In this document: positions 14,015 through 54,514 of the stretch, piece after piece
Position numbering within the stretch: position 1 is the stretch's first letter
How the letters are laid out: each line of letters starts with the position of its first letter
Source of the DNA: Owenia fusiformis
Taxonomy: Eukaryota > Annelida > Polychaeta > Sabellida > Oweniidae
Assembly: GCA_903813345.2 (NCBI GenBank)
Contig: CAIIXF020000010.1
Coordinates: 10,718,349 to 10,782,348 of the forward strand
Reading direction: 5' to 3'
Length of the DNA stretch: 64,000 nucleotides
Position numbers and translations under genes: made by a program
The notes under the pieces: model-generated
What the model saw: the letters and a program-made list of their open reading frames with translations, nothing else
What the model was told of the DNA's origin: nothing
Databases searched by the model: none

Positions 14015-17000
14015 TTACTGGGTCTGCTGAACACCATTCCCATTAGCTGTTTCATTGAGCTGTGCCTTTGCTGCTGTACATATGGTCTTAAGTTCTTCAA
14101 CGAGTGTTTCGTGTCTGTATGCTACCCTGATATCTGGTACATTAGTCCTGCTAATGTCATTACCAGCTACACCCTCCTTTGTGTAGTTAGGGCCTAACCA
14201 ATGCTGCTTCACCTTGAGGAAATAGCAAATAGGAAGTAGTAAAATAGGAAATAGTAAAATGGGAATTTTTCACTCAGTTTATAAATATAAGATTCAAGTT
14301 TTTACTTCAATTGCAAAGCTAAATTTTGAAGAATATTACTTAATTAATGATTAATTAATTTTACTTAAAAATTTTGTAACCCAAGACTTTTTTTATTTTA
14401 GTTGTTTGGAACATTTCCCTACTCTATTGTGTTGGGTTCTATTGTATTGTATTGATTTAAATTGTACTGTACTGTCCTTTACTGTACTGTACTGTACTAA
14501 ACTGTACTGTACTGTGCATAACTGTACTGTACAGTATTGTGTTATGTTGCAGTGCATACTCTAGAAAGCATGTACTGTACCTTGTGTGAAAATCCACTCA
14601 TGACAACACTGTTCTTGGCCAGCTCACACATGTCACATGATGACATCTTCCATACCTGGGCTGCAATGCTGTATTCTTCCATCAGAGGTTCCTACAAACA
14701 ACAAGCAAATAATTATTTACAGATTTCTACTGAGCAGACTTCTATTTACAGTACATTTATTTAAGAAGTGTATTAACTGACCACAATGAAAACATTTTAA
14801 AATCCAAACCAACCCATTTCATACAATAACCACAATTTCAGCTCATACCCAACCCAACACAACTATTGAAGCAAGATACCACCAAACTAGAAAGCAACCC
14901 CACCATATAAGCTATATATCTTCCCTATGAAACATACCCCGCATTTTGAAGCCCACTCCATGAGAAGCATACATGAAGTTTATGTGCCTAAAAACCTTTG
15001 AATCAATCCTCCAGCTCAGAACACAAGTTCACACTATCAATCAAATACTACTAAACCCAATGAACCATCCTTATAAATAAACCCCAGCCTATGAAACGTA
15101 CCTTAGTGTAATGAAACTGAAGAGGGTCATCTGTAGAGAGGGAGAGGTTCAGACCCCTGGCCAGGAAGTCTGGGAGGGGGTTCCTGTGGTAGTTGAGGAA
15201 CAGGGAGTTATTGCTGAGTGGCGACATTGCGATTCCTATCTGGGCTAGATAGTACAAGTATTGGAGAACAGGGGCCTGCAATGAAGAAAATAATATACAA
15301 CATCTGGAACTCATGAGCTACATTGTGTACAATGACACTATCCTTCACAGAAGACAGTATTTTGCATGTTTTGACATAGTGATTTGGCTTTCCATGAAAA
15401 TTAGAGTACACTGGATTATTTGGTTTTACGGATAGGAGATTTTGCAGACTAGCCCACAAATGACATATCACATGCATGTTTTGGACCCCTAAAATATATC
15501 TCCATTCAGAAAAAAATGTTAAGTATGAATAAAGAATGATTTAGGTCTATGTGAAAAACAACAATGAATTTTAATTTTGCATGAAGTTTCTGTACCCCCA
15601 CATTTCGAACTTACATAGATTTTGTCCATTACCCTATGTAAGTTTGGAGAGGGGTAAAATCAGGGTGAATCAGCAAAACCAAATGAATCTCACCTTTCTA
15701 AGAAGCAGACCATGAGATATGTTCTCTGATAGCATGAACCCTGTAACTAAATGATGGACTGGACCTGCCTCCCCACAATGTGGACGTAGCACCAATGTAT
15801 GAAGACCTCGTTCTCTGTAATACAAAAGTGGTATTTTTAAAGGTTATAGTGAACAAAAAGGGATTCATAAAAGTCGAAACATTTTAATTCTTTCATTTAT
15901 TCATGGGTGGATGGAGGGATGAAAGATGGATGGGATGGGATTGATGAAGGGATGGATGGATGGATTTGGTAGATGCAGTGATGGCATGGCTTTGGTGGAT
16001 GGCTTTGGTGGATGGATAGATGGATGGGATGGGATTGGTGAAGGGATGGATGAAAGATGGATGGGATCGGATTGATGAAGGGATGAATGGATTTGGTAGA
16101 TGCAGTGATGGAATGGCTTTAGTTGATGGATAGATGGTGTGGATGGAGGGATGGATGGAATTGAGGGGATAGATGGAGCTCTATATCCTCTAATATCCTA
16201 CCTTCTGAAGTTGTTGAGAACTGAGAGGTTTGCATAGAGGTAGTAGAGGTAGTAAGAGTAGGGAGGGTTCTCCTTTGATGCCCATTTCTCTGGTAGAGGA
16301 CTCTCTTTGTCAAATACAAGATTCTCTGTCTTGCTTTCATCATCTACTGAGTCAATGCCAGTAACCTAGAATAAATACATTATGCCAGTAAAAAGAGGCA
16401 CTTGTGTTCTAAAAAATCAGATAAGTACATTTTAATGAAAGAATATGATACTTATACAGTTACATGTAATAATGGACATTTATTTCATTTTTTGTCAATC
16501 ATAATTGTGGTGATGAATTACAGCCTTAGTTAAACCTAACCTAACACATGATAGAGTTCACATCAGTTTGTACTGAGGGGATAGATGAAATCCTCAGACT
16601 TCCAATAGTCTATATTGTACAACCTATAATATTACAACTGTACAATTTAAAGGAATTTTTTACCATATACTTACATGCTGCAGGAACTGGTGTAATTGTG
16701 GGTGACTTTTAGGATCATTAGTCACCTCAAACAGTGGCCGGAATATGTTCTCAAGCAGTTCTTGAAAGTTATTCAGAAGCTTTTTGGCCTTGTAGACATC
16801 ACTGAAATGTCAACATAATTGCTAAATACATTTACAGTGAAACATGTAGAGTAGAACACATCTTGAAGCCCTTTCATCTTTCAACTTCAATTATTAATAA
16901 TCAATTCAAAAAATTAAATTACTTCATTTTATTTTAATACCTTCTCAAATCCATGCAAATTCATTAGCTGAAAAATATTCTGAAGGATTTAAAATATTCA

Positions 17001-20000
17001 TTTAAAATGAACAAACTAAAACTGGAAAATAACATGAAAACTCACAATAGCCTGGGTATCTGTATCAGCCATCGTACATTATCGGAGTAGACCTGGTGTT
17101 TTGTGGCCCATATTGCTAGTTTGTCCCATTCGTCAGCACTTTTTCCATATATGGACAGACGATATTCAGCATTCTGGTATTTACTCTCCTCAAGATCTTC
17201 ACAAGTTTCCTAATGAATAAAAACAACAAAATATACAAAATAAAATAAAATGAGTGGACTCAAATTTAAATAAATAAAATGAGTGGACTCAAATTTAAAT
17301 AAAAAATTACATGTTCAGGGCAACTTGTACAAGTACACGGAAATTGAAATGGCAAGATACAATTTATTTTCAAATGTGTTTTGAATTTATGATTAGTTGA
17401 AAGAGCGCACTTTTGAGTTCATCATATGATCTTGCAAAGAAAACCTTGTGTCATGTTAAGAAGGCAAATTCTCAGACCTGGGTTTAGAATGGGACAAATG
17501 GGAACCAATCTGCTCATGGGAGGTCAACTGACTTCCAACACTTAATACAAAGTAATCTATAACACAATAATTTGTGACCCTTTATCTTAAAATTACAGCT
17601 TACCTTGATGACATGTGCAAAGTATTTTCCTCCAATGTAGTTATCAGTTTTGATGAAGATCTCCCTGAGTCTGCTCTCACCAATAGGATTGTACTTAGCA
17701 TTGAACTTATCAAACCTGTGGAAAGTATTTCGGTCCTGGAACAAATAACAAAAAAACATGCTCAAAATTTTCCATGTCATCAAATGTAATTTGTTATTTT
17801 TTTAACATTAAGGCTTCACAGCTATAAACTTTCAGCAGTAATTTGTTGTCAACTAAAATTTTTTGATAATGGCTTATTTTAATTAATGACTTGTTTTAAT
17901 TATAGACGAGGTGTATTTTAATTCAATTACAGCAAAGAGTGATCATTCAAATAAGCATTTTTACTGCTGTTTGGTTATGTTATAAAGTTGTTAACTTTAA
18001 ATATTATGGCTTCACTGCTATATACTTACAGCATGCACATCCAGCATGTCAACACTGAGTTCATAGGGCGTCAGATTCAAACTCTCAAAAACCTAAAAAT
18101 AAATCAAAACTTTAGATCTGTTGAGGATGAATAAATGAATATATGTAAACACAGTCATAGTTATTTGTGACATTTTCTAAACACATTTTAAAGTCTTGTT
18201 GTTTTTTAATAGAATGTACAATAATATTTATTCAAATCCCATTGATTTACAAAAATAATCAAAATTATAGAAAAATGCTCATTCTTTAGGAGTTTCTTAC
18301 GTTCTCCTTTTTTGAAGCATATTAAGGATTTTAATTCAATGTCTCATAATAAGTCAGGCTTTTAATCTCTCAAGATGAAGTAAAAAATTAGAAAGCAAGA
18401 ATATAGTATTATTAGCACTCTACAGAAATAGGAGCAATATCGACAATATATTTGCCTAAAGCATAAACTAACAGGTTGATGTGCATGGGGTTGTTAATTT
18501 ATTCTACTGTTAAGGTATGGAGTGTTGAATTTGATAATGAAGCTGGAATGTCATAATAGGTATCAAGTTCTATTTGAAAGAACTTACCTGAAAATTAGCC
18601 TCTAGGTCAACTTAGTGTTTGGCAATGTTATTCATATAGGCCATAGCGAACCCATCATTAAGTTATAAGGAACATCTATATTAATGTCACACTTTATTTG
18701 ATAAATGTCATAAAATGAATATATTTTCTGAAAAGTTGCTCACCTACTCATAATATTCATAAAATTCGCCATTTAAGTGTTCTCATTAAAAATGAGAATA
18801 ATGAAAATGTTTTACTTGGATTTTTTCTGAAAATATATGTATTGACAAAGGTTTCTCATTCCTCAATCAATTTGATTTACCGGTATCAAGGATTTTTATG
18901 ATCCTTTATCAGATTATGTCAAAAATATGATGATTCTGAACAGAATCTCTATAAATGATGCATCTTGTTCTATGTTAAAACTAAACACATTCAACACATC
19001 GTAACATGCCTCTGCCTTAACTCTTACCTGTTTAAGGGTAAGCTCCACTCCTTCACGATTTTTCGTAACAATGTCTGTAGGATTGCGTTTTACTGTACTT
19101 TTGATAAAGCGTAATAAGTGTTTTTGATTCATACAAGATGAAGCGTGTACGTGAGTGTCCACCTGTTAGATAAAAACACACAGGAAAAAGCAGGTTAGAT
19201 ATAGGATCACACTGAAGTTAAAGGCACACGCTTTATCCCAAACTCCTGTTAGGTTTGTTAGCTAGGATGAGGCGGGAGTGACAACCACACATGTCAACTC
19301 CATCACATGTTACTTTAGGCTGGTAAGATAGGGAAAGATAGAAGTTAAAGCCACACATTTAATTCACTCTCTTGCAACCTAAGGCTAGGGTAATGAATTA
19401 TTATGTTTTTAGCATTACAACATTTATTTTGACATGTTGCAGAAGTATGGTGGGATGTAATTTGAAAAAAAAAATTCCTCAAAATGACTAAATAGGGATA
19501 TAAGGAGACACAATTCTAATCACATATTGAGTAATTATGTGGTTTTAAAAGATGGAAAGAAATATGCTGAACATGTAATTAATTTACCCTAGCCTTTAAT
19601 CAACAAAAATGTTCGGCTGTTAAAATATAACAGAGAACATTTTTAAAAGAATAAGAGAGAGGAATGAAGCTTGCCTGCACAGGAGGGGAGAACCCGTAAT
19701 GCAATATTAACATTGCAGTATGGTTAACTGTTTCTGTAAGTGAGGTTAGATTACTCAATACAAAACCAGAATGACTACTTGTGATTCTGTGATACAATCA
19801 AGATGACTTGGATAAAGCACACTTGGGATAACCATGATGCCAAAATTCACTCTGGGTTGACAGATTTAGTTGGCCAAGTCCAGGTTCAATCAAAGTAATA
19901 ACCAATCTTCCCTACTGATTCTAAGCCTCGATTACTTCATCCTAGTCCATATAAGAAAAATGACAACAAAAATCTCAAGTGTTCAATCGGTTTTGTATCC

Positions 20001-23000
20001 TCAGAAACCTACACAACCTTACTTCTTTCAGCGAGAGCTCATGCCCAGATGGATCCATATACGCCTTGTCTTCAGCATATAATTTCACAGTTTTCTTAAT
20101 AAACCGTAATAGATGCTTCTGGTTCATACATGACGAAGCATGTATATGAGTATCAACCTGGGAAACACACAACTAACATAAAATGGAGAAATATTTCATC
20201 ATTTCAATAGCAAGGTCAGGTTTGGTGGATTGGCAAAATTTTTTCATCCAATATCAGAACAACTCTAGACTGATTGCAAAAATGCCTACATGCCGATTAG
20301 TGGATTTCAATGCTAGTATCCTCTAGGGGGGGGGAGGAGTTACTGAGATGCTAAGCCCATAAAACATAAGTGATAGAGTAATGGCAAAAATGATAGACTG
20401 ATTGTGTACAATCGTTCACGTTTTTTTAAATCAAAGTAATCATGAAAATGTGTTGTAATTGTATTGTTGTAAATGTATTGTGTACAATGGTTTATGTTTT
20501 TTTTAAATTAAAGTAATCACGACCCCCCCTCCCCTGTAAATGTCAGACTTACTTTAAAATTTAAAAAAATAGAAAGTACACACTGCAAAAAAATAATGCA
20601 GATGAGACACCATGCCCGAAAGGATAATATGTCATTGGCTTGGTTTTTATAACTGACAAAAATTCACCACTAATCACTGTCATGGTTAATAAATGATATA
20701 ACATAAGGTACCAGTATTCCACAAAACAAATATACGAGGGGCGATCAGGAATTTCTGGACCGTTGGCTCTATTTTTGCCATTTTTCATCCTTTCTTAATA
20801 TTTTTTTCACACAATGTAACCCAAATAAATAGGATCACACCATGAAGATTCCATTGTTCTTTGACATCATTATCCTATTATTTTTGTTACCATGGTAACT
20901 GATGACGCAATAAGGTGGGGCTCGCTATTTTGTACTTCGATTTGCTATAAAGAAAACCATGAAATTTCAAATAGATTGTAGTTTTAGCTTTTTCAATCAG
21001 AATTTAAATTGAATGACAGGTGATTTCAAATCAACTTAACTGAATGAAAGGTGCCCTCGGTGTCATCATGGTTCTCCAAAAGTGACTTCAGCACACTATT
21101 CGTAAGGAGAGGGGGCTGGAGTTCTTCAAGAGAATTCGTCTAAACAATGATAACGCACCACCCCAGAGAGCGAGCCTCACACAAAATGTTATTGATTCCA
21201 TTGGTTTTGGCCGTGTACCACACGCATCGTATTCCCCAGACTTAGCTTGCTTTGATTTCTATCTTTTCCCCACAGTGAAGAACAAATTACACTGAACAAG
21301 GTATCAACTTTGAAGACAGTAATATAATAAGATCATTTGGGAATTGACACGCCAATGTTACAAAGTAGGCAAAGATGGCCTGTATCGCATCTTTACGGAC
21401 CGGGTGAAAATTAAGGCATAACAATTAAATGCTTACAAAATGCTGGTAACTTCTTTGAAGGATTATGGAATAATAATTACAGTTACAATGAACATTAATG
21501 CATATACTTAATGAAATAATACAATCTATTACAGTATGTCACATATTCAGCAATGAATACAGTGTCTAAACATCATATGAAATTACTGTTGATTTTTCAA
21601 ATTTGGTACTTTTTCTGAGCTCCAACTCATTGCGTCACCGATTACCATGGCAACAAAAATAATAGGATAATGATGTTGTTGAACAATGAAATCTTCATGG
21701 TGTGGTCCTATATATTTAGGTTATATTGTGTGAAAAAAACACTAAGAAAGAATAAAAAAATGGCAAAAATAGAGCCAACGGTCCAGAAATTCCTGATCAC
21801 CCCTCGTATATATCGGAAGCTCACTCAGTGTTCTTAAATGACCCCCCCAAATGAGGATGCTGCATTTCTACAGCAGGTAAAAAACACTACGTTTAGTTGC
21901 TCTATGCAGTATGAAAATACACAAAAAATTCAATCAGTCAAGATAAACCCCCAAATGTCTGCAAAAAAAGCATGCGAAAACTTAAGTGTGTCTTGATATT
22001 AGTCAGGTACATGTATAACTAGAAGTGGGTGGGTGGGTTTTTTAAAATGGCCTGTTTTCAATACAGGAGCCTTACAGCTTCACTCATTAATTTATTCACA
22101 TGCTGAGTAGGGGGGGGGGGTGTTGCGGCTTCAATCCATAATCAATAAATAAGGTTTGACTTATTTAACTAAATGGAGAACCACCATCAATCATTAACAC
22201 AAATCAATTTCAATATTCGTTTTTTCAACACCAAGACCCTATAAACTCATGAAATTGAAATGTAAACTGGAATGGAATGTTCAGCGCAATTAACCTGAAA
22301 GGAAATAAAGCAAGGTACTCTGTGTTAATCACTGGATATAACGAAGCTCACTGCAAAGCACATGTGCAAAAATGCCTCACTTACACACATGGTGATCATA
22401 TATAAAACCTTGCCACATTTTGCCACATCTTGCCACATTCTGCCACAGTCATATTACAAGAGTGAAGTTTTAAATAAAACCTCACAAGCATTCACTTCAT
22501 TGTGATTTCACTTCGCAAGGACCACATACATGACCACCATGGTATTTCAGTAAGGCCAACAGCATTGATGCCACACTTCATAAGTGCTGATACCTCACTA
22601 AGAGTCATTTCCTTGCCAGTACTTGGGTCTAGATAGGCAGTATCACCTGAATGACGCTTCATTGTATGTTTAATGAAGCGAAGCAAATGTTTCTGGTTCA
22701 TTGCTGATGCAGCATGGACGTGAGTGTCCACCTAGAACATAACACAGCCAGCTTTGCAACACGTAACATGCATACTGATCAGTTAACATAAATAGACATG
22801 TAATTTCTGTATTTAATCTCTTGAATACAAAAACAATGATTAACATATATTACAAATAACATACAAGGGAATCCAAAGAGACAGACAGGTCAGCAAAGAA
22901 TTTTTCATAAAGTTTCACAAAATATTTATCCAATTTATTCAAATTATGTTTTAAACCATATAGGGCTTGGATTTTCCCCTCATTAAACACTATATGGAAG

Positions 23001-26000
23001 ATGTTCTGATTCACAGTGTTGGAGAGGTTATGAACTAATTATTTAGCAAATGAGACAATCCTAAAGAAGGCTCTCTGCCTGCTTTAATTCCACTAATATC
23101 CAAGGAATTCCCTCCATTGAGCTTTGAAATAATACACAGATAAATGTAATAACATAATAAGGTAACACCATTCTAGGTAGATTCGGAGAAAGAGCATCAT
23201 TATCAATATAATTTTTGATTGTAATTTCTCAATCCCTCTGATTCTACCTTCAAAGTATATAATCTTTAATTTTTAAACTGAGCGATATTTACTATTATAC
23301 CACTCTAAGTCCAATTACAGTTGTATAACATGGGTCTATAACAACGATATACAGTGGAGAGTGGTATATCGTCATCGTATACAACTCCTCCGTATACACT
23401 CCAGCGTATACCACTGTAGAAGTGCATTCTGGGAACTAATGAATATAGACTGACGAACAAGGTGTATATTTTGTTACACAGACTGTTGTGTCCCTCGAAT
23501 GGGCGGAGTGAATAAGGAGTTCCGACACTTCAAAATTTTCATAATTTCCTAAAATCAAGTGACGTCATAAATGGTTCCGGCATGATTTGCTAGAATCAAG
23601 CCACGTCATAAATGGTTCGAGATCAACATCGGCATTATTGAGTTGGCTATGGGATATTTTTATGGTTTTTAATTGTTATGATTGTATTCGAATCAACTGT
23701 AATTGAACTTAGAGTGGCATGATAAGATTATAATGGTTAATTCTGTATATCGTGCATTTTATACTCTCGAGAGAATATAATATATTCACTCGTTCGCTAC
23801 GCTCACTTGTGAATATATCATATACTCACTCGAGTATAAACACGATATACAGATAGAACCATTATATAACCTCATATTATTCAATTTTATATGAATACAT
23901 GTATTTATAAATACTGTAAGTATATTGGAAATAATTCAACGATGCTGACCTTCCTTATGTTATAGAAGTCTCTGTGTGGAACTTCCTTCTGAGCTGCAGA
24001 TTCCCTCAGCTCATTCAGCAAAACATGGAGCTGGTACTTTGAGGAGAGATAATTGAGACGTCTGTAGCAGAATGACTTCCTAGAATTGGATTTAACATTG
24101 AAAATAATTGAAGAATAAAAGAATTAAAGAATCAAATTATTCACATTAATAGGTATTATTTAATTGGCTAAGAGTATTCACATTGCAATGGCTACAGTTA
24201 GGAAATGCATTGGCTAAAAGTGTTTATACCACTCTAAGTCCAATTACAGTTGTATAACATGGGTCTATAACAACGATATACAGTGGAGAGTGGTATATCG
24301 TCATCGTATACAACTCCTCCGTATACACTCCAGCGTATACCACTGTAGAAGTGCATTCTGGGAACTAATGAATAAAAAAATCATGAAAATTTTCATGATT
24401 TCCTAGAATCAAGTGACGTCATAAATGGTTCCGGCATGATTTGCTAGAATCAAGCCACGTCTTAAATGGTTCGAGATCAACATCAGCATCATTGAGTTGG
24501 CTATGGGATATTTTTATGTTATGATTGTGTTCGAATCAACTGTAATTGAACTTAGCGTGGCATAATAAGATTATATAATGGTTCATTCTGTATATCGTGA
24601 ATTTTATACTCTCGTGAGAATATAATATATTCACTCGTTCGCTACGCTCACTTGTGAATATATCATATACTCACTCGAGTATAAACACGATATACAGAAA
24701 GAACCATTATATAACCTCATATTATATTACATTGGTGATTGGGTAAAGGGATTTATATTGTATTGACTAAGTGTTAACAGTGTAGTGGATAACTGTTATA
24801 CATGTATACACAACAAGGACATTGGCTAAAATTATTTACAATGCACAGGAAGAGTTATCAATGCAATAATATTTCTGAAAATTGAAACAATTGTAAATGA
24901 TAAGATTGATTTGATGATGTTACTATGATTCAATCATTAAAGCCAATTCATTCAAGTTATTGCATGCAATTCAAAATATTTTCAAGATATAACCTCCTGG
25001 CTCGTGATACTTACAAGGGACCATCACTGATAAAAGCTAGCAGCATATTCTGTTCCTTTAGAAAATCTTGTAGTTTGGGATATGGAACATTAACTGGCTC
25101 TTCTCTAGCAAAGGTATCGCTATTCTTGTAGACCTTATATACACCATCTTGTATTTTGAACTTGCATCCACAGTCGTCCAAAAACTCCAGTTTAAATGGG
25201 TCACCTGCTGTAGACGGGGGGTGAATTGGATGGTCTGAAAACATAAATAGGATCTTTAAATACTTGGAAAATTTTAGAAATGTGTTTCAACATTTCATCT
25301 TTAATGATTATATATTCCATATGATAATATTAGCTTGAATCATTTAATATATCATAACAATCTAAATCCTTTACAATTAGAAATGTGATTATTCTCAAAA
25401 AAGCAGGGTATATGTGTGTTTAAATGTATGTATTAAAATGAATGAAGTAAACCAAATCACACAATATTTGAATGTAATAATGAGTACACACTGGCTTACT
25501 GGACACAATACAGTTAAAAAATTGATGATTCATAGTGGAAAATGTTCATGCCAGTAGCGGGATGTGTCAGGTCTACCTGGTGTGGAATAGAATAACAGAG
25601 AGTATTGGAACCACAACTGATTATTATTGTATTAGGTGAATGATGATTAATCATTACCATGCTGTTTTAAAAACAATGAAGAAATTTGTTTATACTCTTT
25701 TACCAGGCACTTTGTTAGAATAGGGGGATGTATATCACAATACAATAGTTATTTGTGTGGGAATAAAATTTCAATAGTAAAGATAAAATAAAAAGAGATA
25801 AGGTAAGAAAAAGAAGTGGAAATTCAACAGCACTCTCATAACGCTGGGGGACATCTCTGACCATAAAATGTATACCTCTACCATCCACTGATCCTGCTAA
25901 AACAATTTCAAAACTCAATGCCAATACACTTGACAAACACAGAATTTAAAAATTGAGATGCATAATTAAAGGGCATATTCTCAGAAGTTTAACAGAATAA

Positions 26001-29000
26001 AATTGAGTGCCTTAAAGCATTCATAGTACATGTACTATATTAACGTAGCATTTTGGATTGTCTTGCACTGTCTTAATAAGAATGTACCAAGATTGCAATA
26101 TAGAAGAAATATACAAAGTTTTGTATTTTTTGATTTTCTACCTGCAATGCTCTTCATATCTGCATGAATACAATCTTTGGCAATGAATTCATCATAACTG
26201 TGTCTTTCTTCAAAACCTTGGAGAAATCTGCTTGCTGTCTTGCAAAATGACTGTAGGCCTATTGCCATATACTTTTCCCGTATCATTAAGGCCTTCACTA
26301 ATGCTTCAGATGCTTCTTTCAAGTCTTCCAATGGTACCTAAAATTCAATAAATAAACATAAAAAATAGTCAATCCCATGAAACAAAATGTCAATGACCAA
26401 TGGCAGTAAAATCTGCCAGCCATCATTTCTGATAATAAATAAAGAATCCAACAGCCATTTTATTTATCAGCTTTTGAGCACTTGATTAGGGCATATCATT
26501 CAAATTATGAAAAATTATCCTATAAATGCTATTTAAGTTATCTCCTGGATGGATAAGAGTGGGAACCAGTTTTATATCCCAAAGAACTTCATTCGAAAGG
26601 GATAATGAATCAAAAAGCAAGGAATCAACATCAATATTCACTGCAACATCAAATATTCAACATCAAAAAACACTGCAACAATGAATGATTTAAATTGTAT
26701 TTAATAATATACCCCTATATAATTATCTGGTTTGCCCAAATTGCCCTAAATACTCTTTAACTAAGAATAAAATATTACTTATATCTATTGTTATATTGTT
26801 ATATATTGTTATAATCAAAATTTCAGCATTGAAATTATCTATGTAATATCAATAAGATGTGAACATGGCTGATGAGAAAAGATTTTGGGTATTGTGCAAA
26901 CATATGATTTGAATTTCATCACATTTCATTACCCCTACATCCTCAATATGTTCTTTATGGTGCACTATCTGCATTCGTTTAAAAAAAGGAAAAATCTCCA
27001 GATCATCTGTTTCTTCTTTGGGTAAATGCTCTATGGGGCCACCGGCGCTGGTATCTGAGCCTGAACCCCTGAGATATGCCATACTTCTCTTTTTTATTTA
27101 ATTAGCTATGCCTTGTTCTCATGATCACATGATTTATACAGCTTCTCTATTATCTCCATAGCAACAAAGTAAATGTAAATGTGCATCACAATGATATTTT
27201 TGAAATGTGATGGTTCTTGGAAATATTTCATCATTGTCTCCTATGTTGATTAGAGGCACTCTTTCATTTCATTCACCTATTGGCTATATTGATTGCTTTC
27301 CATAGGAAGTATTACTTTCTAGTAGCATCCGATTACACTGCTTTTATTATTCCATATGATTAGAGTGAATGCAAATATCATTTTCTTGCTTCAAAGTCAC
27401 TCAATGTCAATCCTACAAGAAACTGTGAAGCAATATCAACCGTGTAAGTAGTACCTGGGTATGTTTCTCTACAGTTCCACTTAGGTTCCGTAGTCTTCCA
27501 AAAATCAATATCTATTGTAGGCAATATGATATTCCCGAGACATGAAATTCCAATTTGAAGCTTTATTGTTATATAACAAATACGTTGTGTGGAAATTATG
27601 GGTCTTATTTAATTTGAATTAACAATTATTATGGACACCATGTCCATGTTCTCCTTATGGGCTGAACAGGTAAAAATATCTTTTAAATATTTGTGTTTTA
27701 GTACTATATTTTTTTTGAAAGAATAACAAAAAATGTTAAAGAATCTATAAAGTAAAATAAGGGCTATTATAAGGGCTATTATAAGGTTTGTTGATTTTTA
27801 AATCAGATGGTATAATTATTCATCTAAAGCATTGGACTGGTTCTTTTTACAATTAATATTATATTATGTATAATATTCTATTCTATATTATATTGTGTAT
27901 TAAGTAAAAAGTAATATCAATCCTACTGACAAACCATATTTTTGCAATACAACTGACTAGATAATAACTGTACCAGGTATATGATATGAAATGAAACATA
28001 TTTGTTACGTGTTCATAATACACATGTAAATAACTGTATAGTGACCCATGTGTCGGAGAGACTGACATATATAAGAGTCAATAAAAGAATAAGCAATATC
28101 AATCTATTTGCAGAGTAATTTGACTATTATTCCTTCCATATGATAAAAATAATGAAAAAACAAAATAGATCATTTCAATAGCAACAAGGCATTAACATGC
28201 AAAATGTCACCACCTGCCATTTGTTACAAACACTGAACACCAGACATCACGACGAATGGTGAACATTGTCACAAAAAAGTTTGAGACCATAACAACATGT
28301 CACCACTTTTGATGGTGACATAAAAAGGGATGCTTATCACATTGTGAAGAACCACATGTTAACAAAACTATACTAAGTTTGGTTACCGATTTGAATATTA
28401 CAATTCTGTGTAAGAAATCCAAATCAAAGGCATCAACAAAAACCCTGGCACATATTTCATTATGAAGTATTTAGCTGTTAAGATGACCTCTAGATAGGTT
28501 ATTGAAATTCCCCATGAGTTGATATATCATGCCAGTGGGACTATAACAATTTATTATATCATTAGAATGCCTCTCACTTTCTTATTGGGTAATAGCTGCT
28601 CCGAATGATCTAATTTTGTACATATATTCATAATGGTAGAAAACTCTGAATATCATGCCATTTAGGCTGTGGCAGACAGAGGAAAACATAAATAGATTAT
28701 CCTATATGAGGTTTAGGATATTGGAATTATCCTGAAGCCAATATAATATACATGTAGATAAAATAATAATCATACCATCCAAGAGATAAACACGATACTA
28801 TGAACCAAACATGGGACGATTTGTTTATCATATACAGTACTATATGTTATTTGTTTATTCATTAATAGTTGAACATTTTCTAGGAGTGTTTGGCTAATGC
28901 TTATAATTATGTGTTTCTTCAAAAGACCTTTATTGTTTATATAGTTATTACATGACTGTGTTTTTCACTATTTTAAATTTTTATGAAACATTTCTTATCT

Positions 29001-32000
29001 ACCTTGTTAATCCAGAATGTAAAATGTTGACTGTGTCCACTAAAATGCCGTTAATGACTTACCCCACTGTTATCCTCTCCACTTATAGAGACTCGCTGGA
29101 ATAGAATTTCATCATCTTCCACCTGTAACCTCTCAGTCTCCATTGCTTGGTAGGCACGTTCACTAGTCTCATTGCTTTGCTGCTGTTGGAACCTGGGGGT
29201 AATAGAAGCACATTCATAATTGGATAGCACAGATATACACTCGGCTTATTGGAACATTGATAAAAAAACATGTCTCATTTATCACATCTAAATCCTTGGT
29301 GATTTGATCAGAAACTGGGTTATTGTAGATTTATATGGCATGGGGGCATGTTATTTGGAACTTGAATCATGAATTATATAATACAGGGTGACCTAATAAA
29401 ATGCAACCCATGAGTAAAATTAACCTTTAGCATGCTACCGGCGAGCGTAGTCGCCCGTGCTTAACAATCCCCGGCAACTGCCGGCGACTCCAGTCGAATT
29501 TAAACTTTCAAAAATTTAACTTTTTCCCGCCGGTCTTATGATCCAATCAGATTGCCCGATTTATTTAGTCCTTACGTGGGGACTTCCTGTTGACCTAGAA
29601 ATGGCGATGTTTTGAAAAATATTTCTCAATTCAACGATTTAAACAGTGTTTAAGTCGTTTTTAGTGAACAAATCATACAAAATGGCGGCCAAATACGATC
29701 ACAACGAACATGTGGAGGAAATGGATCGCGATTTCGAGCTCTTTATGCTCTTGGAAGCCGATAATGGTCATCGAAAATAGAAACTAGAATATTTTCTGAA
29801 CTGAAAAATGAACATTCGATCGCTGCAAATTCAGTTTTGGATTCTGACCAGACGTTGAATCTCCACAGGGGCGAAGCGGCGGATTCCGGAGGAGTATTCA
29901 TGGTATATTTATGCCCAGTCCTGTTTATTTATGTAAAAAATTCATGAGAACATTTTTTTCATGAGCCAGGCCAATGTATCTTCTCTTTGTGAAAATTTTA
30001 TCCAGATTCATTCAGTAGTTATTGAGATATTAATTATTTAGTCCAGGCATATCATTTTTTGCACTCTTTGAAAAATAAGTCAGTCGCGTGGGATATATTT
30101 GCTGAATTAAGTTAGCATGCAGAAGGTTAATATAACTCATTCATATTGTGAGTACTTTGTGAAAGTTGGCAGAAGTAGACCTGAAGATATACCTGTGTTG
30201 ATTGGTAAGTTTCAAACATACAAGTAATATTTAAATCTAAGAAGGTTATACTAATTTCAAATCACACACCAAGTATCATCAATCCTGCTTTGGCCTATAC
30301 CAGAAGTTGATGGACAAAATCATTTGTAACACTAATACCAGTGATCTCCCCATGTCACTTTTACCGGGGGCTCCCCCTACTTGAAACCAAAGGCCCCCCA
30401 GTTGGCATCTGCACTTCAACTTCTGATTTAAAAAATGAGTGAAGTAAGCACCTACACAGAGATATTGTGAGCGTAGCGAGTGCTGATTTTTTCAGACTTG
30501 AAATCTTGCACCCAGTTGAAAATTTTTTTTGGGGAGAACACTGAATACCATTCATAAAATCAGCATTGTATGAAGAGTATGATGAAGGATACTTTAAGGG
30601 TAATGTGTATTAAAGAAATTCCCAAATTCCTTACTTTTTGGTAAAAAATGACAAAAATAATAGTGAAATGCACTTTCTTTTAATCTCAAAGTGGTTGAAC
30701 ACGCTATATGAGAATTTAATCCAGAGGATGCCATCATTACGACACATTTATTTTAAAAATGGATGGTTGCATTTTTATGGGTCACCCTGTATTTATATTA
30801 CTCATTTAGTATTTATTTAATATACTTAATTTGAATAATTTTATATCCAACATCAAAGTTTTAAAATCAGTCTCAAAGAAGATTCTTGTTCAAGGGTTTT
30901 GTTTTCAATATACATTAACACTCTAGTCAAGTAAAATTCAGTTATTGAATATTTGTTGAATGTATCGGATACATGTAAGAAACGATTCATTTACAACACA
31001 AGATCAAATTATTTGATACATGTCTTAACATGATAAACATATGAGAGCCAAAAAATAAAAATTAATATAGCAGTAGAAACATGATGTAAAACAAGGCATT
31101 AACATGACACAATGTCACCAACTAGTTGCTCACAATATTATGAGTTCAATCTTAAGTCAGATTTGAATTTCTGAGAATTTGTAGATAATTTTGAAAAAAC
31201 AAATTGGTCAATTTGAAACAAGTTTTAAAAATACCTTTTTGTAACATATTTCACATTGAATGTGAAATCGCAAATCTAAAGTCAGATTTGAACTTCTGAG
31301 AACTTGTAGATGATTTTGAAAAAATGGTCAATTTGAAGCAAGTTGAAAAAATACATTTTTGACCTTGTGAAGTCAATGAAGGTCAAATCTTTTTTTACCT
31401 TCAGAATGTCATTGAAGGTCAAATCTATAGTCAGATTCGAACTTTTGAGAACGTATAGATGATTTTGAAAAAAAATTGGTCAATTTGAAGCAAGTTGAAA
31501 AAAGATCTTTTTGACCTTTTATGACCCTGAGAAGGTCATTGAAGGTCAAATTTAAAATATAACCAAGCATATAGCCAACCACCAACTGCCACCCGCCGAT
31601 CGCCTACCACCAACCGATGCCATAAAAAATGGAGACCATTACAATATGTCACCACTTTCTGGTGGTGACATAATAATGTTTTAAAGTTCAGGAGCTTAGA
31701 TTGATCTCTATTATTCCAGTTTATAAGACTCCTTATCTATACCGCTAGTGTATGGTCTGTTTGGACCAACACACAACAGCCTTGAGTAGGTATCATAAGT
31801 ATCTATCACATTTTCAAAGATGATTTTAGAATGGTTTAGAACTGGAACACTTACAAAATGTCATCAAAAATATCATCTCTGATTTCTTAATCTAATGGTG
31901 CCATTTATCGTAATTAAAGCTAGAAGCTTTCAATTAAAGTAAAGTAATATTAAGATTAAGCCAGCAGCTACATAATCAATAAGAATAGATGAATGAATCT

Positions 32001-35000: not shown

Positions 35001-38000
35001 CTTATTCCTTTAGTTTATTAGTCATCTTGGGCTAAGATCTGAAATGTTTCATTAAAACAAAAGTTTAGAACCTAGTACCTTTGCTATAAGATGAAACCTT
35101 TCATTAAACAAGACAACAAGATCAACATCAGGAATCTGGTTGTTTCTTTCATGCATTGTATTATAAATTATAATGACATGATGACGTATCATATTATGAA
35201 AAATCAGTAAAATCCATTTTTGCCATCTTCCTACTTGAACGGATAGTCATGGTTCCAAATGAGAGTGTGCTAATGAGACACTGTTTTGTACGCCAGTGAT
35301 CTCTATCAATCAGCAGATCTAAATCAATAATATACAATTTGTTCTGTATGCTACATATGTACATGTATACTAATAACAGGAGTAATGACATATATGCTAA
35401 AGATAGACCTCGATCAAATATTTAGATGTAGCACTAATTATATTAATGGTAACAACTCGAGGATAGTAAATAATCACGGGATGTCATCGCCTGATTTGGT
35501 CAATGTTAGGGAGCAGGTCGTTTTTACAATAAATTTCAATATTTTCACACAAAATATTTTTTTACTGAAAAACTGCTCATTCGCAGAGAAAATGTACTAG
35601 CACATGCAATGACAATGTCAATCACGCTTCTGTACGAAATTCGGCGGAAGTCTTTTATAATCTAATACGAAGTTACTAAAAAAGGCGCGAACGCCCTACA
35701 CTCAAAATGATCGTTTTTCCATTATAACTTTTTAACGTAATTTAACGAAGGCTTCTAATTATTATCCAAGATAGTCTAAATACCGATTAAAATATTTCTT
35801 ACTTCAAACAGATACGCCGTCTTTTATTCAATTTTTTAAAAAATAATAAAAAATAACTCTTGTCAATGTTAGGGAGCAGTCAATGTTAGGGAGCAAAATG
35901 ATTTTATCAGAATATTAAAAATGTAGCAAATGGCCATTTAAAATATGTATGGCATTTATAAACTAAACAATATTGTTTGAATGATTATTTTAAACCCCTT
36001 GCCTTAACAAAATTTAACAAAATCGATAAAAAAAATTGTTTTGCATTTTTGTTATCTTCAGAAAATGGACTCTCAAAGATTTTTGACGAAGGAAAGTTAA
36101 TTATTATCATGGATAATCTCAGTACATATTGAAATATTTCTTACTTCAAACAGGTACACCTTTCTTTAATTTTTTTTAAATAATAAAAAATAAGTATGAT
36201 CAATGTGGCGGAGCAAACAATGCAGTGGGGCGAAATGGTTTTATCAGAATATCAGAGTAATTGGCCTTTACAAACATGTATGTCATTTATAAACTAGACA
36301 AGATTGTATGATTGTTTTATACCCCTTGGTATAAACCTTACAAGCATACAGTATTGCTCAGCACAATATACACAATTTAACCAGATACAATAATTACATG
36401 ACATCTCCCTTTATTCATGATATTGTATTTAAATAAATGAGCTCATCTTTGTATATAAATTATTGTTTTGAAATAGACCGGTAACACTTAAAGAAAGTCT
36501 AAAACTTTGTCCAATCATATTTTAGAAATGTTAGAATAATAAAACATTTTGGGACTTCACACATTTTCAACCCAACCCTACCTTCACGAGGAAAACATTA
36601 CTCTGTTTGACAGGGCAGTGTAGTCATAACAGGCTAGTCAACTGACATGAGACAGGAAATAAACACATTTCTCTGATCGAGTTGATATCTCCAATTTCCA
36701 TGATTTCAGATTTCAATGATACTGCAATTTTGTTTGGCTGGGAACTGACCAATGAACACTCTGTTAATTAATCAGTAATTACATTGTAAATACGAGCGAC
36801 TGTTTTTGCGTTTCAATCGAATTCATTTCTAATACATTTCTTTGTGGAGATGATTCATCAGGAGCGTTAATTGCTACATAAAGAGACGCTCGTAGTTTGT
36901 TTGCTTCATGGAGTAAAAATAAAAATGTAAGTTTAAAATTTAATTTAAATCGAAAGTTTGTCGAATTATGACACTATTTAGTTGAATATTTTATGAATAT
37001 TTTAATGCATATAATACTCATTGTTAATCAGGCCACGCTAAACTTAGCGAGAAGTTTGTTTAAAATGACGAGCAATAAACCAAGAATCGTATTGTCTCTG
37101 AATGCTGTCTTTCGTTTAGTGCTTCTGCTGAAAATACTGGTACATCCCCGGGACTGTGATACGTGTGATTTTCGACTATATCGGTGAAAAAGCTCGGTTC
37201 AGCATATTCATTAGCGCATGTTACAGTAAATATATATCACCCCCCCCCCCCCACAGCTTGACTTCCATTCTCAGCAAATAGTTTTACTTATTTTCATGGC
37301 CATAATATCCCGGTGTGATCGGGGACTTACCCTGTAGGTTTACATGTAACTACCATGATCAGCAATCAATTGGTCAAATTAATCTGTAATTTATTTTCAA
37401 TTTATAATTTTTCTTTTAGAATGGCTTTCGTGTGTCACTTTTGCGGAGAACATTTTTCATCCAACTACAATATGCATAGACATACTATGGATAGACATAT
37501 GGTAGACGCTGTGGAATATAATTGTCACACTTGTGGTAGCAAGTTCAAAAGGAAAGATCATCTTATTCAACATATGATGGTGCATAACTCTAGTGATCAT
37601 AAGAATGTGTACGTATGCAGCAAATGCCCAAAACAGTTCTCTAGGAAAAGCTGTTTGAACAGGCACGAGATGACCCACAAGGACTCTGAGTTCTTTTGTG
37701 AGACTTGCCAGGACATGGGATCAGATATGGAGGGCACACGCTGCTTCAAAACAAAACATTACTTAAACGTTCACAAGAAGCTTGTTCATGGAAACACGTT
37801 ATTCAAATGTCCACATTGTTGTAAGGAGTTTAAATACCGAGCAACCTTACAACGGCATATTAAAACGAATCATTCTTCAAACATGTAAGATAGCGTAATA
37901 AATGCGCAGCTGCAGTTGCTAGCTAGCTCATGATCTAGTAGCATGAAATGTAATGTTTTGTTATTTTAAAAATTATGTCTCCCCTGAACTGTAAATTTCA

Positions 38001-53300: not shown

Positions 53301-54238
53301 TTAATTGCAGTTATTGACATAGGCATAGTATGATGATTTAAAACTACTTAGACTGTCACAGTCTAAGATGTCACCAGGTAGAGTGTTCCATTTAGCTATT
53401 GTCCTAGGGAAATAGCTAAATTTGTATGCATCCGTTCTAGTTGATGGTTGTATGAACTTAGAAGGATGATACAGCCTAGTGTTGGTATTGATCTGTTGGC
53501 GGAAGTATGGAGGCACGTCGATGGCTGCAAGGTTTTGCTTTCCTTTGTAGAAAAGGAAAACTCTAGCAGCCTCTCGACGCTCCTTCAGTGGCTCCCACTG
53601 TAGGTCTTGAAGAGCTTTGGTGACGCAGCCTGGTTCCCTTGAATGACATTTGGTTACAAACCTGGCTGCTCTTCTCTGTACCTGTTCCAACATATCAATA
53701 TCTTTTTGTCGGTATGGGTCCCATGCCGAACTGGCATACTCTAAATTAGGCCGGACAAGTGACTTATACGCCTGAGCCTTCACTTTTTCAGGGCATTGAT
53801 GGAGGTTGCGCCTGAGAAATCCAAGCACCTTATTGGCTTTGGATACAATAGTTTGAATATGTGTAGTCCAGCGTAAGTTGTTTGTGATGTCAATACCTAG
53901 GTATGGGATGTGTGTTACCGACTTAAGGTTTTCCCCTAGCATGGTGTAATTGTGAATGATAGGGGATTTACCTTTGTGAATATTAAGCACATAGCATTTT
54001 GATGGATGGAATTTCATTTGCCATGTTGATGCCCAGGAGACCAGTTTATCTAGATTCTCCTGTAGTGTTAATGCATCTTGCTTGCTTTCGACTGTCATGA
54101 ATAAAAGGCTGTCGTCAGCAAATAGTTTAAGGCTTAAGTTGCTAAAATAGTGACTTTGTAGCATTTCATAGTGAGCAAATAATGAAATGTTATTCTTACA
54201 AATGACTTTTTTGACATCGATCAAAATTTTCAAGACAA
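53301..54238 (-). mobile_element. Non-LTR retrotransposon fragment, reverse transcriptase C-terminal part
   Basis: Open frame with LKLFADDSLLFM (catalytic FADD), WQMKFHPSKCYVLNI, HIPYLGIDITNNLRW, LVRPNLEYASSAWDPYRQKD and LEQVQRRAARFVTKCHSREP, the usual order in Jockey/CR1-type LINE reverse transcriptases. The endonuclease and N-terminal RT are missing. The formal ATG of the frame (54266) comes from the adjoining MITE TIR and is not native. The frame has no stop from FADD to its end, so the copy is young or the frame was kept by chance. Confidence 0.9.
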
Positions 54239-54514
54239 TTAGGGCGAAGGGGTGTAACGTCGACATCGTTTTGGGGTAACTTCGACATGTGGGGTAACTT
54301 CGACACCTTGTTGTTTATTTGCTCTAATTTCCGATCTAGGGGAAAGCCATGTTTTTTTTCTCGCATGAATCGAGATCTCGCGAGATTTTAATTTTTCCAG
54401 AAATCAAACATGGCGGAAAACGGAAATTCTACTTCTAATACGTAAGTGTCGAAGTTACCCCGTCCATTATGTCGACATTACCCCACACGTCGACATTACA
54501 CCCCTTCGCCCTAA
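54239..54514. mobile_element. 276-bp MITE with TIR TTAGGGCGAAGGGGTG
   Basis: Begins TTAGGGCGAAGGGGTGTAAC and ends with its reverse complement. Subterminal GGGGTAACTTCGACA motifs are repeated on the left and mirrored (GTCGAAGTTACCCC) on the right. It carries no coding capacity and abuts the truncated LINE, so it probably inserted into it. Confidence 0.85.

What the first reader, a model, noticed from the sequence alone, without database searches (positions are those of the whole stretch)
19028..22731. Three tandem, apparently mutually exclusive exons for the catalytic metal-binding segment of AMP deaminase
Seen: three exons, each with intact splice sites and phase 0 on both sides (138, 135, 135 nt), encode alternative versions of the segment with the HxH ligands and [11 protein letters not shown]. 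The core is strictly kept; the last ~24 residues differ strongly. All would join the same upstream (FYNIRK) and downstream (VFESLNL) exons in frame. Known: AMP deaminases have one such segment, and vertebrates vary the enzyme with three paralogous genes. Inference: exactly one exon is chosen per transcript, giving one gene several active-site versions. Including two would duplicate the metal-binding motif.
Basis: partly seen in the sequence, partly recalled or inferred. Interest (0 to 1): 0.9.

Follow-up and report, generated by a model that had tools for sequence, protein, structure and literature searches.

The report
Three swappable AMP deaminase zinc-site exons
An invertebrate's AMP deaminase gene carries three old, intact versions of the exon holding two zinc-binding histidines, so the animal probably makes three forms of this energy-balancing enzyme by choosing one exon per transcript; no RNA was available to prove the choice.

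Summary
On the minus strand, one AMP deaminase gene has three tandem homologous exons: A 22731-22594 (138 nt), B 20157-20023 (135), C 19162-19028 (135). Each has AG/GT borders, is phase 0 on both sides and encodes VDTHxH...[11 protein letters not shown]. No other exon of the gene has a second copy in the window, and a profile search found no second AMP deaminase locus. The copies are neither recent nor decaying: synonymous sites are saturated (pS 0.77-1.11), yet 18-20 of 21 core residues agree pairwise. Proteins joined from exon e3 onward score alike as AMP deaminase (955, 956, 964 bits; cut-off 726). The tails agree at 8-12 of 24, like human versus Arabidopsis (8 of 24); the tail varies among AMP deaminases anyway, so divergence alone does not prove altered function.

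One exon per transcript is the best reading, because two copies would duplicate the zinc-ligand segment. I found nothing that enforces it: double inclusion and skipping stay in frame, and no excess intronic pairing was seen. The same genome's COQ2 carries the published coq-2 a/e exon pair, a direct precedent. Known kind; I found no report for this enzyme.

The parts
22594..22731 (-). Alternative exon A, 138 nt, phase 0/0: [46 protein letters not shown]
   Evidence: donor GAG|GTATCA, 5 of 9 matches to consensus, U1 duplex -5.8
20023..20157 (-). Alternative exon B, 135 nt, phase 0/0: [45 protein letters not shown]; core identical to human AMPD2 (21 of 21)
   Evidence: donor GAA|GTAAGG, 6 of 9, U1 duplex -5.0
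19028..19162 (-). Alternative exon C, 135 nt, phase 0/0: [45 protein letters not shown]; strongest donor of the three, CAG|GTAAGA
   Evidence: 8 of 9, U1 duplex -11.0
23950..24079 (-). Common upstream exon (e4), ends FYNIRK, donor AAG|GTCAGC (6 of 9)
18030..18092 (-). Common downstream exon (e6), [21 protein letters not shown], 63 nt
25015..25234 (-). AMPD exon e3 (start of the region aligned to human AMPD2)
26142..26337 (-). AMPD exon e2 (N-terminal region; profile match below cut-off)
29063..29192 (-). Probable AMPD exon e1 (N-terminal region; 5' end of gene not determined)
   Evidence: open frame and splice sites only
17604..17735 (-). AMPD exon e7
17046..17209 (-). AMPD exon e8
16675..16801 (-). 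AMPD exon e9
16202..16365 (-). AMPD exon e10
15694..15814 (-). AMPD exon e11 (HCGEAG motif)
15102..15275 (-). AMPD exon e12 ([11 protein letters not shown] motif)
14581..14691 (-). AMPD exon e13
14015..14212 (-). AMPD last coding exon e14 with stop codon

Best explanation
This is a three-member cluster of tandem-duplicated, mutually exclusive exons in the only AMP deaminase gene found in an invertebrate genome that also carries the COQ2 a/e exon pair of rhodoquinone-making animals. SHOWN: three intact, splice-competent, in-frame versions of one exon, old and kept by selection. INFERRED: each mature mRNA carries one of them, so one gene makes three enzymes with the same zinc-ligand core and different following loops. 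The likely function is tissue- or condition-specific tuning of AMP deaminase (regulation, subunit contact or stability) rather than a change of chemistry. The splicing choice would rest on protein regulators acting on middling splice sites (the shared upstream donor AAG|GTCAGC and the donors of A and B are weaker than that of C) and possibly on UGUGUU elements next to all three acceptors.
For: Exon anatomy and open joined frames. Saturated synonymous sites with 18-20 of 21 core residues kept, against a maximum of 14 kept in 5000 neutral simulations at 0.5 substitutions per site. The three forms joined from e3 onward match TIGR01429 far above cut-off, 955.1, 955.5 and 964.0 against 726.3 bits. 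PF19326 matched over its cut-off at this locus only. None of the other 13 exons has a second copy in the window. TGTGTT lies within 45 nt upstream of 3 of 3 alternative acceptors and 0 of 13 others; on 5-mers, 3 of 560 acceptor triples, this one included, share two or more exclusive words. Precedent in the same genome: COQ2 has tandem exons of 131 and 134 nt with the published Phe-to-Leu and Ala-to-Ser pair. Two copies in one protein would repeat the zinc-ligand segment in a TIM barrel (barrel fold: PMC3042610).
Against: No transcript evidence. Double or triple inclusion and skipping leave the frame open, 0 internal stops in 5 of 5 combinations tried, so nonsense decay would not clear errors. 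No clear pairing between introns: in 6 intron pairs, 2, 12, 17, 12, 13 and 17 of 25 shuffles were as good or better. No steric, U12 or distant-branch-point signature. Weak donors are not special to the cluster: 7 of 12 common-exon donors match at 5 or 6 of 9. The acceptor motif was chosen after looking, its 5-mer TGTGT occurs in 28 of 181 pyrimidine-rich pseudo-acceptors, and it may be inherited from the duplication itself.
Confidence: 0.8

Rival explanations
1. Only one or two of the copies are used; the others are silent remnants of exon duplication on their way to decay.
For: Exon A has the fewest donor matches of the three (5 of 9), though by U1 duplex energy B is slightly weaker (-5.0 against -5.8). 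A replaces a Cys that B, C, human AMPD2 and Arabidopsis FAC1 share by Ala. No RNA.
Against: Synonymous sites are saturated for all three pairs while the core stays 18-20 of 21 identical; dead copies of that age would not keep it. All three keep frame and splice sites.
Confidence: 0.1
2. The exons are alternative but not exclusive: some transcripts hold two or three copies, giving a protein with a repeated segment.
For: The combinations tried remain in frame and nothing found in the introns forbids exon-to-exon joining.
Against: The segment begins with two zinc ligands of the barrel (roles recalled); a 45-residue repeat there should unfold the enzyme (inference from the fold, PMC3042610). No AMP deaminase known to me (recall) has such a repeat; the two solved sequences matched do not.
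Confidence: 0.07
3. The choice is real but functionally neutral: the tail is an unconstrained loop and the isoforms behave alike.
For: For form B the tail is the least conserved 24-residue stretch in the 469 compared columns against human AMPD2 (6 of 24; 2 of 446 windows are as low, both overlapping it; the less conserved start of the alignment, query residues 2-100, was left out of this count). The ice worm paper notes a length-variable loop between strands 2 and 3 (PMC3042610), which by my numbering conversion falls in this tail.
Against: Three copies have been kept intact past synonymous saturation, which neutral redundancy does not predict.
Confidence: 0.15
4. Assembly or haplotype artefact (collapsed alleles or misjoined paralogues).
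For: None found.
Against: Copies differ at 11-13 of 21 third positions in the core, lie in one 37 Mb contig, and no other AMPD locus was found to lend them.
Confidence: 0.01

Closest known systems
coq-2 exons 6a/6e (nematodes and other helminths, annelids, molluscs), PMC7434440
   Same: Tandem homologous exons of near-equal length, chosen one at a time, in a metabolic enzyme; they swap a part of the protein close to the substrate (passages). The pair is present in this same genome.
   Different: Two exons, not three. There the swap changes two residues near the substrate and shifts which quinone is made; here HxH and [11 protein letters not shown] are the same in all three. There 134-nt exons (131 and 134 here) would shift the frame if both were included; here nothing shifts.
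OGDH exons 4a/4b, PMC7969005
   Same: Mutually exclusive duplicated exons tuning an energy enzyme (calcium response) (passages).
   Different: Exclusion there is enforced by distant branch points in a short intron; no such sign here (AG-free zones of 20, 15 and 49 nt before A, B and C, introns of 2436 and 860 nt).
PKM exons 9/10 and KHK exons 3A/3C (recalled, no call)
   Same: Exon pairs that swap a segment of a metabolic enzyme by tissue.
   Different: Vertebrate, two exons, unrelated enzymes.
Vertebrate AMPD1, AMPD2, AMPD3 (named in PMC12246493, passages)
   Same: Three versions of AMP deaminase in one animal.
   Different: Made by separate genes, which differ along the protein and most in the N-terminal part (paralogue comparison recalled; N-terminal divergence among homologues in PMC12246493 and PMC3042610); here one gene varies only 45-46 residues.

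Membership tests
AMP deaminase (TIGR01429, PF19326) | Match above the curated cut-off | tested here: met
   A, B, C forms joined from e3 onward: 955.1, 955.5, 964.0 bits against 726.3
AMP deaminase (TIGR01429, PF19326) | Zinc-site motifs HxH, HCGEAG and SLSTDDP present | tested here: met
   Present in the joined proteins; aligned to human AMPD2, and to Arabidopsis FAC1, where HCGEAG reads HSGEAG; their roles are recalled
AMP deaminase (TIGR01429, PF19326) | Deaminates AMP | not testable with these tools
   needs protein
Mutually exclusive tandem-duplicated exon cluster | Neighbouring, homologous exons of similar length | tested here: met
   138, 135, 135 nt; tblastn E 6e-13 to 5e-17 between them
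Mutually exclusive tandem-duplicated exon cluster | Same reading phase, each joins both neighbours in frame | tested here: met
Mutually exclusive tandem-duplicated exon cluster | Splice junctions from every exon to the flanking exons | not testable with these tools
   no RNA reads
Mutually exclusive tandem-duplicated exon cluster | No exon-to-exon junctions unless these shift the frame; criterion of PMC5740500 (passages) | not testable with these tools
   joined frames stay open, so only reads can tell
RNA-structure (docking/selector) controlled cluster | Intronic sites that pair beyond chance | tested here: inconclusive
   6 intron pairs, none clearly beyond 25 shuffles each, best 2 of 25; single species, low power, two repeat stretches masked
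Steric or distant-branch-point cluster (OGDH type) | Very short intron, or long AG-free zone before the second acceptor | tested here: not met
   introns 2436 and 860 nt; AG-free 15 nt (B) and 49 nt (C)
U2/U12-incompatible cluster | One exon bordered by U12-type sites | tested here: not met
   no U12-like branch site in the last 40 nt of 4 introns; the four donors read GTCAGC, GTATCA, GTAAGG, GTAAGA (consensus recalled)

The most novel reading that the evidence does not exclude
The AMP deaminase switch is part of an oxygen-dependent splicing programme in rhodoquinone-making animals: together with COQ2 exon choice, it retunes adenylate breakdown and purine-cycle fumarate supply when the animal turns to fumarate respiration.
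Probability: 0.08. Interest if true: 0.85.

Novelty: new member of a known kind. Interest (0 to 1): 0.52.

Why it matters
AMP deaminase helps to set how much adenylate a cell gives up when energy is short (general knowledge). Vertebrates have three genes for it; this animal appears to vary it inside one gene by swapping the exon that begins with two zinc ligands. If RNA confirms it, the three natural versions give a clean way to ask what the variable loop after the HxH motif does, since the rest of the protein stays constant. With COQ2 in the same genome it would be a second energy-metabolism enzyme built this way.

Tried and rejected
Second AMP deaminase gene: PF19326 gave 16 matches, 15 in this gene and one of 12.2 bits elsewhere, below cut-off. 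PF00962 matched two places outside the window (4 candidates scored); the AMPD exons themselves did not ring there, so that search says little, and I did not look at those two places further.

Fourth exon copy or duplicates of other exons: none in the window. The best stray hit (exon B, E 0.016, 30978-30859) is open but lacks HxH and MNQKHLL.

RNA pairing as the exclusion device: six intron pairs, nothing clear. I masked 20730-21811 and 23290-23870 (repeat-like) before that test.

Steric hindrance, distant branch point, U12 sites: no sign. Rfam: no match at gathering score in the window.

Species: no COX1 match, no haemocyanin-domain match (no control rang, so uninformative), no haemerythrin match (controls rang in 7 of 14).

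Papers: no paper holds both 'AMP deaminase' and 'mutually exclusive exons'. 'AMPdeam' with 'mutually exclusive' gave one goat survey, seen in the listing only. Searches (5 of 5 listed; 2 of 2; 12 of 208; 12 of 14) showed no title or abstract start on this. PMC11016001, PMC6164516 and other AMPD papers in the listings were not opened, except PMC3042610, PMC4101493 (passages) and PMC12246493 (passages). 'AMPD' does not occur in the main text of PMC5740500 or PMC9741552, nor 'AMP deaminase' in PMC8659336. Searches (20 of 132; 15 of 70) supplied precedents. Most subscription papers are not held, so this is weak evidence of novelty. The FAC1 structure paper is not held.
Full report
OBSERVATION. The window lies in an unnamed 498 Mb genome, contig C10. 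The minus strand holds one AMP deaminase gene from about 29192 to 14015. Its exons were placed by profile matches and by reading splice sites. Three tandem exons, A (22731-22594), B (20157-20023) and C (19162-19028), each encode the segment VDTHxH...[11 protein letters not shown] plus a tail of 25 (A) or 24 (B, C) residues. All have AG and GT borders and phase 0 at both ends. Joined with the other 13 exons, A, B and C give open proteins of 688, 687 and 687 residues; the first exon is tentative and the 5' end of the gene is not settled.

NOT CHANCE, NOT RECENT, NOT DEAD. In the 21-residue core the pairs share 18 (A-B), 19 (A-C) and 20 (B-C) residues, while synonymous sites are saturated (pS 0.86-1.11 in the core, 0.77-0.93 in the tail, Nei-Gojobori count; dS not finite). 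In 5000 neutral simulations at each of four rates, the best kept 14 of 21 core residues, and 11-15% stayed free of stops. Stop-freedom alone is thus weak evidence; core conservation is the strong one. The three forms joined from exon e3 onward (579, 578, 578 residues) score 955.1, 955.5 and 964.0 bits with TIGR01429 against a cut-off of 726.3.

CORE AND TAIL. HxH and [11 protein letters not shown] are the same in all three. B's core equals human AMPD2 in 21 of 21, C's in 20, A's in 18; A has AASA in place of ASSC. The tails agree at 12 (A-B), 8 (A-C) and 9 (B-C) of 24; human AMPD2 against Arabidopsis FAC1 gives 8 of 24; A, B and C against human give 9, 6 and 8. One residue of A was left out to compare them. 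For form B I compared 469 columns of the alignment with human AMPD2, from AAQKE onward; the start of the alignment (query residues 2-100), which is less conserved, was left out. There the tail is the lowest 24-residue stretch: 6 of 24, with 2 of 446 windows that low, both overlapping it; 315 of 408 columns after the exon are identical. So within the catalytic part the exon combines one of the best conserved pieces with the worst conserved one. The ice worm paper (PMC3042610; the text, no figures) reports insertions at position 129 in clitellate AMPDs and a loop T129-G131 between strands 2 and 3. By my conversion (its residue 188 is Arabidopsis 480; the HxH numbering of FAC1 is recalled) this falls in the tail. 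In a paper on human AMPD1 (PMC12246493, passages) an inferred salt bridge at the dimer interface joins K287 and D361; by my count, with recalled numbering, these lie in the upstream and downstream exons, so the swapped piece sits between two subunit-contact residues. Both placements are inferences.

ONE GENE. PF19326 gave 16 matches in the genome, 15 at this locus and one of 12.2 bits elsewhere. Weak matches can be missed in G000, so a divergent second gene is not fully excluded. Of the other 13 exons none has a second copy in the window (best stray hit E 0.09); the best stray hit of a variable exon, E 0.016 at 30978-30859, lacks the motifs.

HOW THE CHOICE COULD BE MADE. The shared upstream donor (AAG|GTCAGC) matches consensus at 6 of 9, A's (GAG|GTATCA) at 5, B's (GAA|GTAAGG) at 6 and C's (CAG|GTAAGA) at 8; U1 duplex energies are -5.4, -5.8, -5.0 and -11.0. 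But 7 of 12 donors of common exons also match at only 5 or 6 of 9, so this is not special to the cluster. TGTGT lies within 45 nt upstream of 3 of 3 alternative acceptors and 0 of 13 others. Across all 560 triples of the 16 acceptors, 21 have at least one exclusive shared 5-mer and 3, this triple included, have two or more; with 6-mers 17 of 560 have at least one. The motif was chosen after looking, 28 of 181 pyrimidine-rich pseudo-acceptors in the introns carry TGTGT, and the copies are homologous, so this is only a lead. Exclusion by frame is ruled out: skipping, A+B, A+C, B+C and A+B+C all stay open. Exclusion by steric limits, distant branch points or U12 sites has no support. A search for pairing among the four introns found nothing clear; 2 to 17 of 25 shuffles were as good in the six pairs.

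PRECEDENT IN THE SAME GENOME. UbiA-family matches led to COQ2 on contig C2 (gene name judged by eye from the translation). It has two tandem exons, 21738589-21738719 (131 nt, LTLNWG...YSHQ) and 21742219-21742352 (134 nt, MTFNWG...YAHQ). Phe to Leu and Ala to Ser are the two changes that the coq-2 paper reports at Phe204 and Ala243 in all e-form exons it examined (PMC7434440, passages). The spacing fits: 39 residues in form a, and 38 in form e, which is one residue shorter (my count). That paper finds the e-form only in animals known to make rhodoquinone (helminths, annelids, molluscs), and also mentions mrp-1 as a further mutually exclusive case in those groups. So this animal is probably a spiralian, and metabolic-enzyme exon swapping probably already exists in its genome (again without RNA).

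VERDICT. A real, ancient, three-member tandem exon cluster in the only AMP deaminase gene found. One exon per transcript is very likely (0.8) but untested. The kind of system is known; I found no report for this enzyme in the open-licence library searched (listings only). Whether the isoforms differ in function is open, because the varying tail is the least constrained part of the catalytic region compared.

Noticed in passing
G000 C2:21738589-21738719 and 21742219-21742352 (L017): COQ2 of the same genome has the e-type and a-type tandem exons known from rhodoquinone-making animals, with the diagnostic Phe-to-Leu and Ala-to-Ser changes.
   Followed up: partly
window 20730-21811: A roughly 1.08 kb element with near-perfect 56-nt inverted ends (98%) and 152-nt arms 84% complementary sits in the intron between exons A and B; it looks like a DNA transposon.
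   Followed up: no
window about 24720-24260 and 23870-23290: Copies of the same palindrome-rich repeat lie in both introns flanking the common upstream exon e4 (seen by eye).
   Followed up: no
window 53301-54314, minus strand: Open frame of 337 codons that reads like the end of a LINE-type reverse transcriptase (judged by eye).
   Followed up: no
window 37319-37888, plus strand: Open frame of 189 codons with several C2H2 zinc-finger repeats (judged by eye).
   Followed up: no
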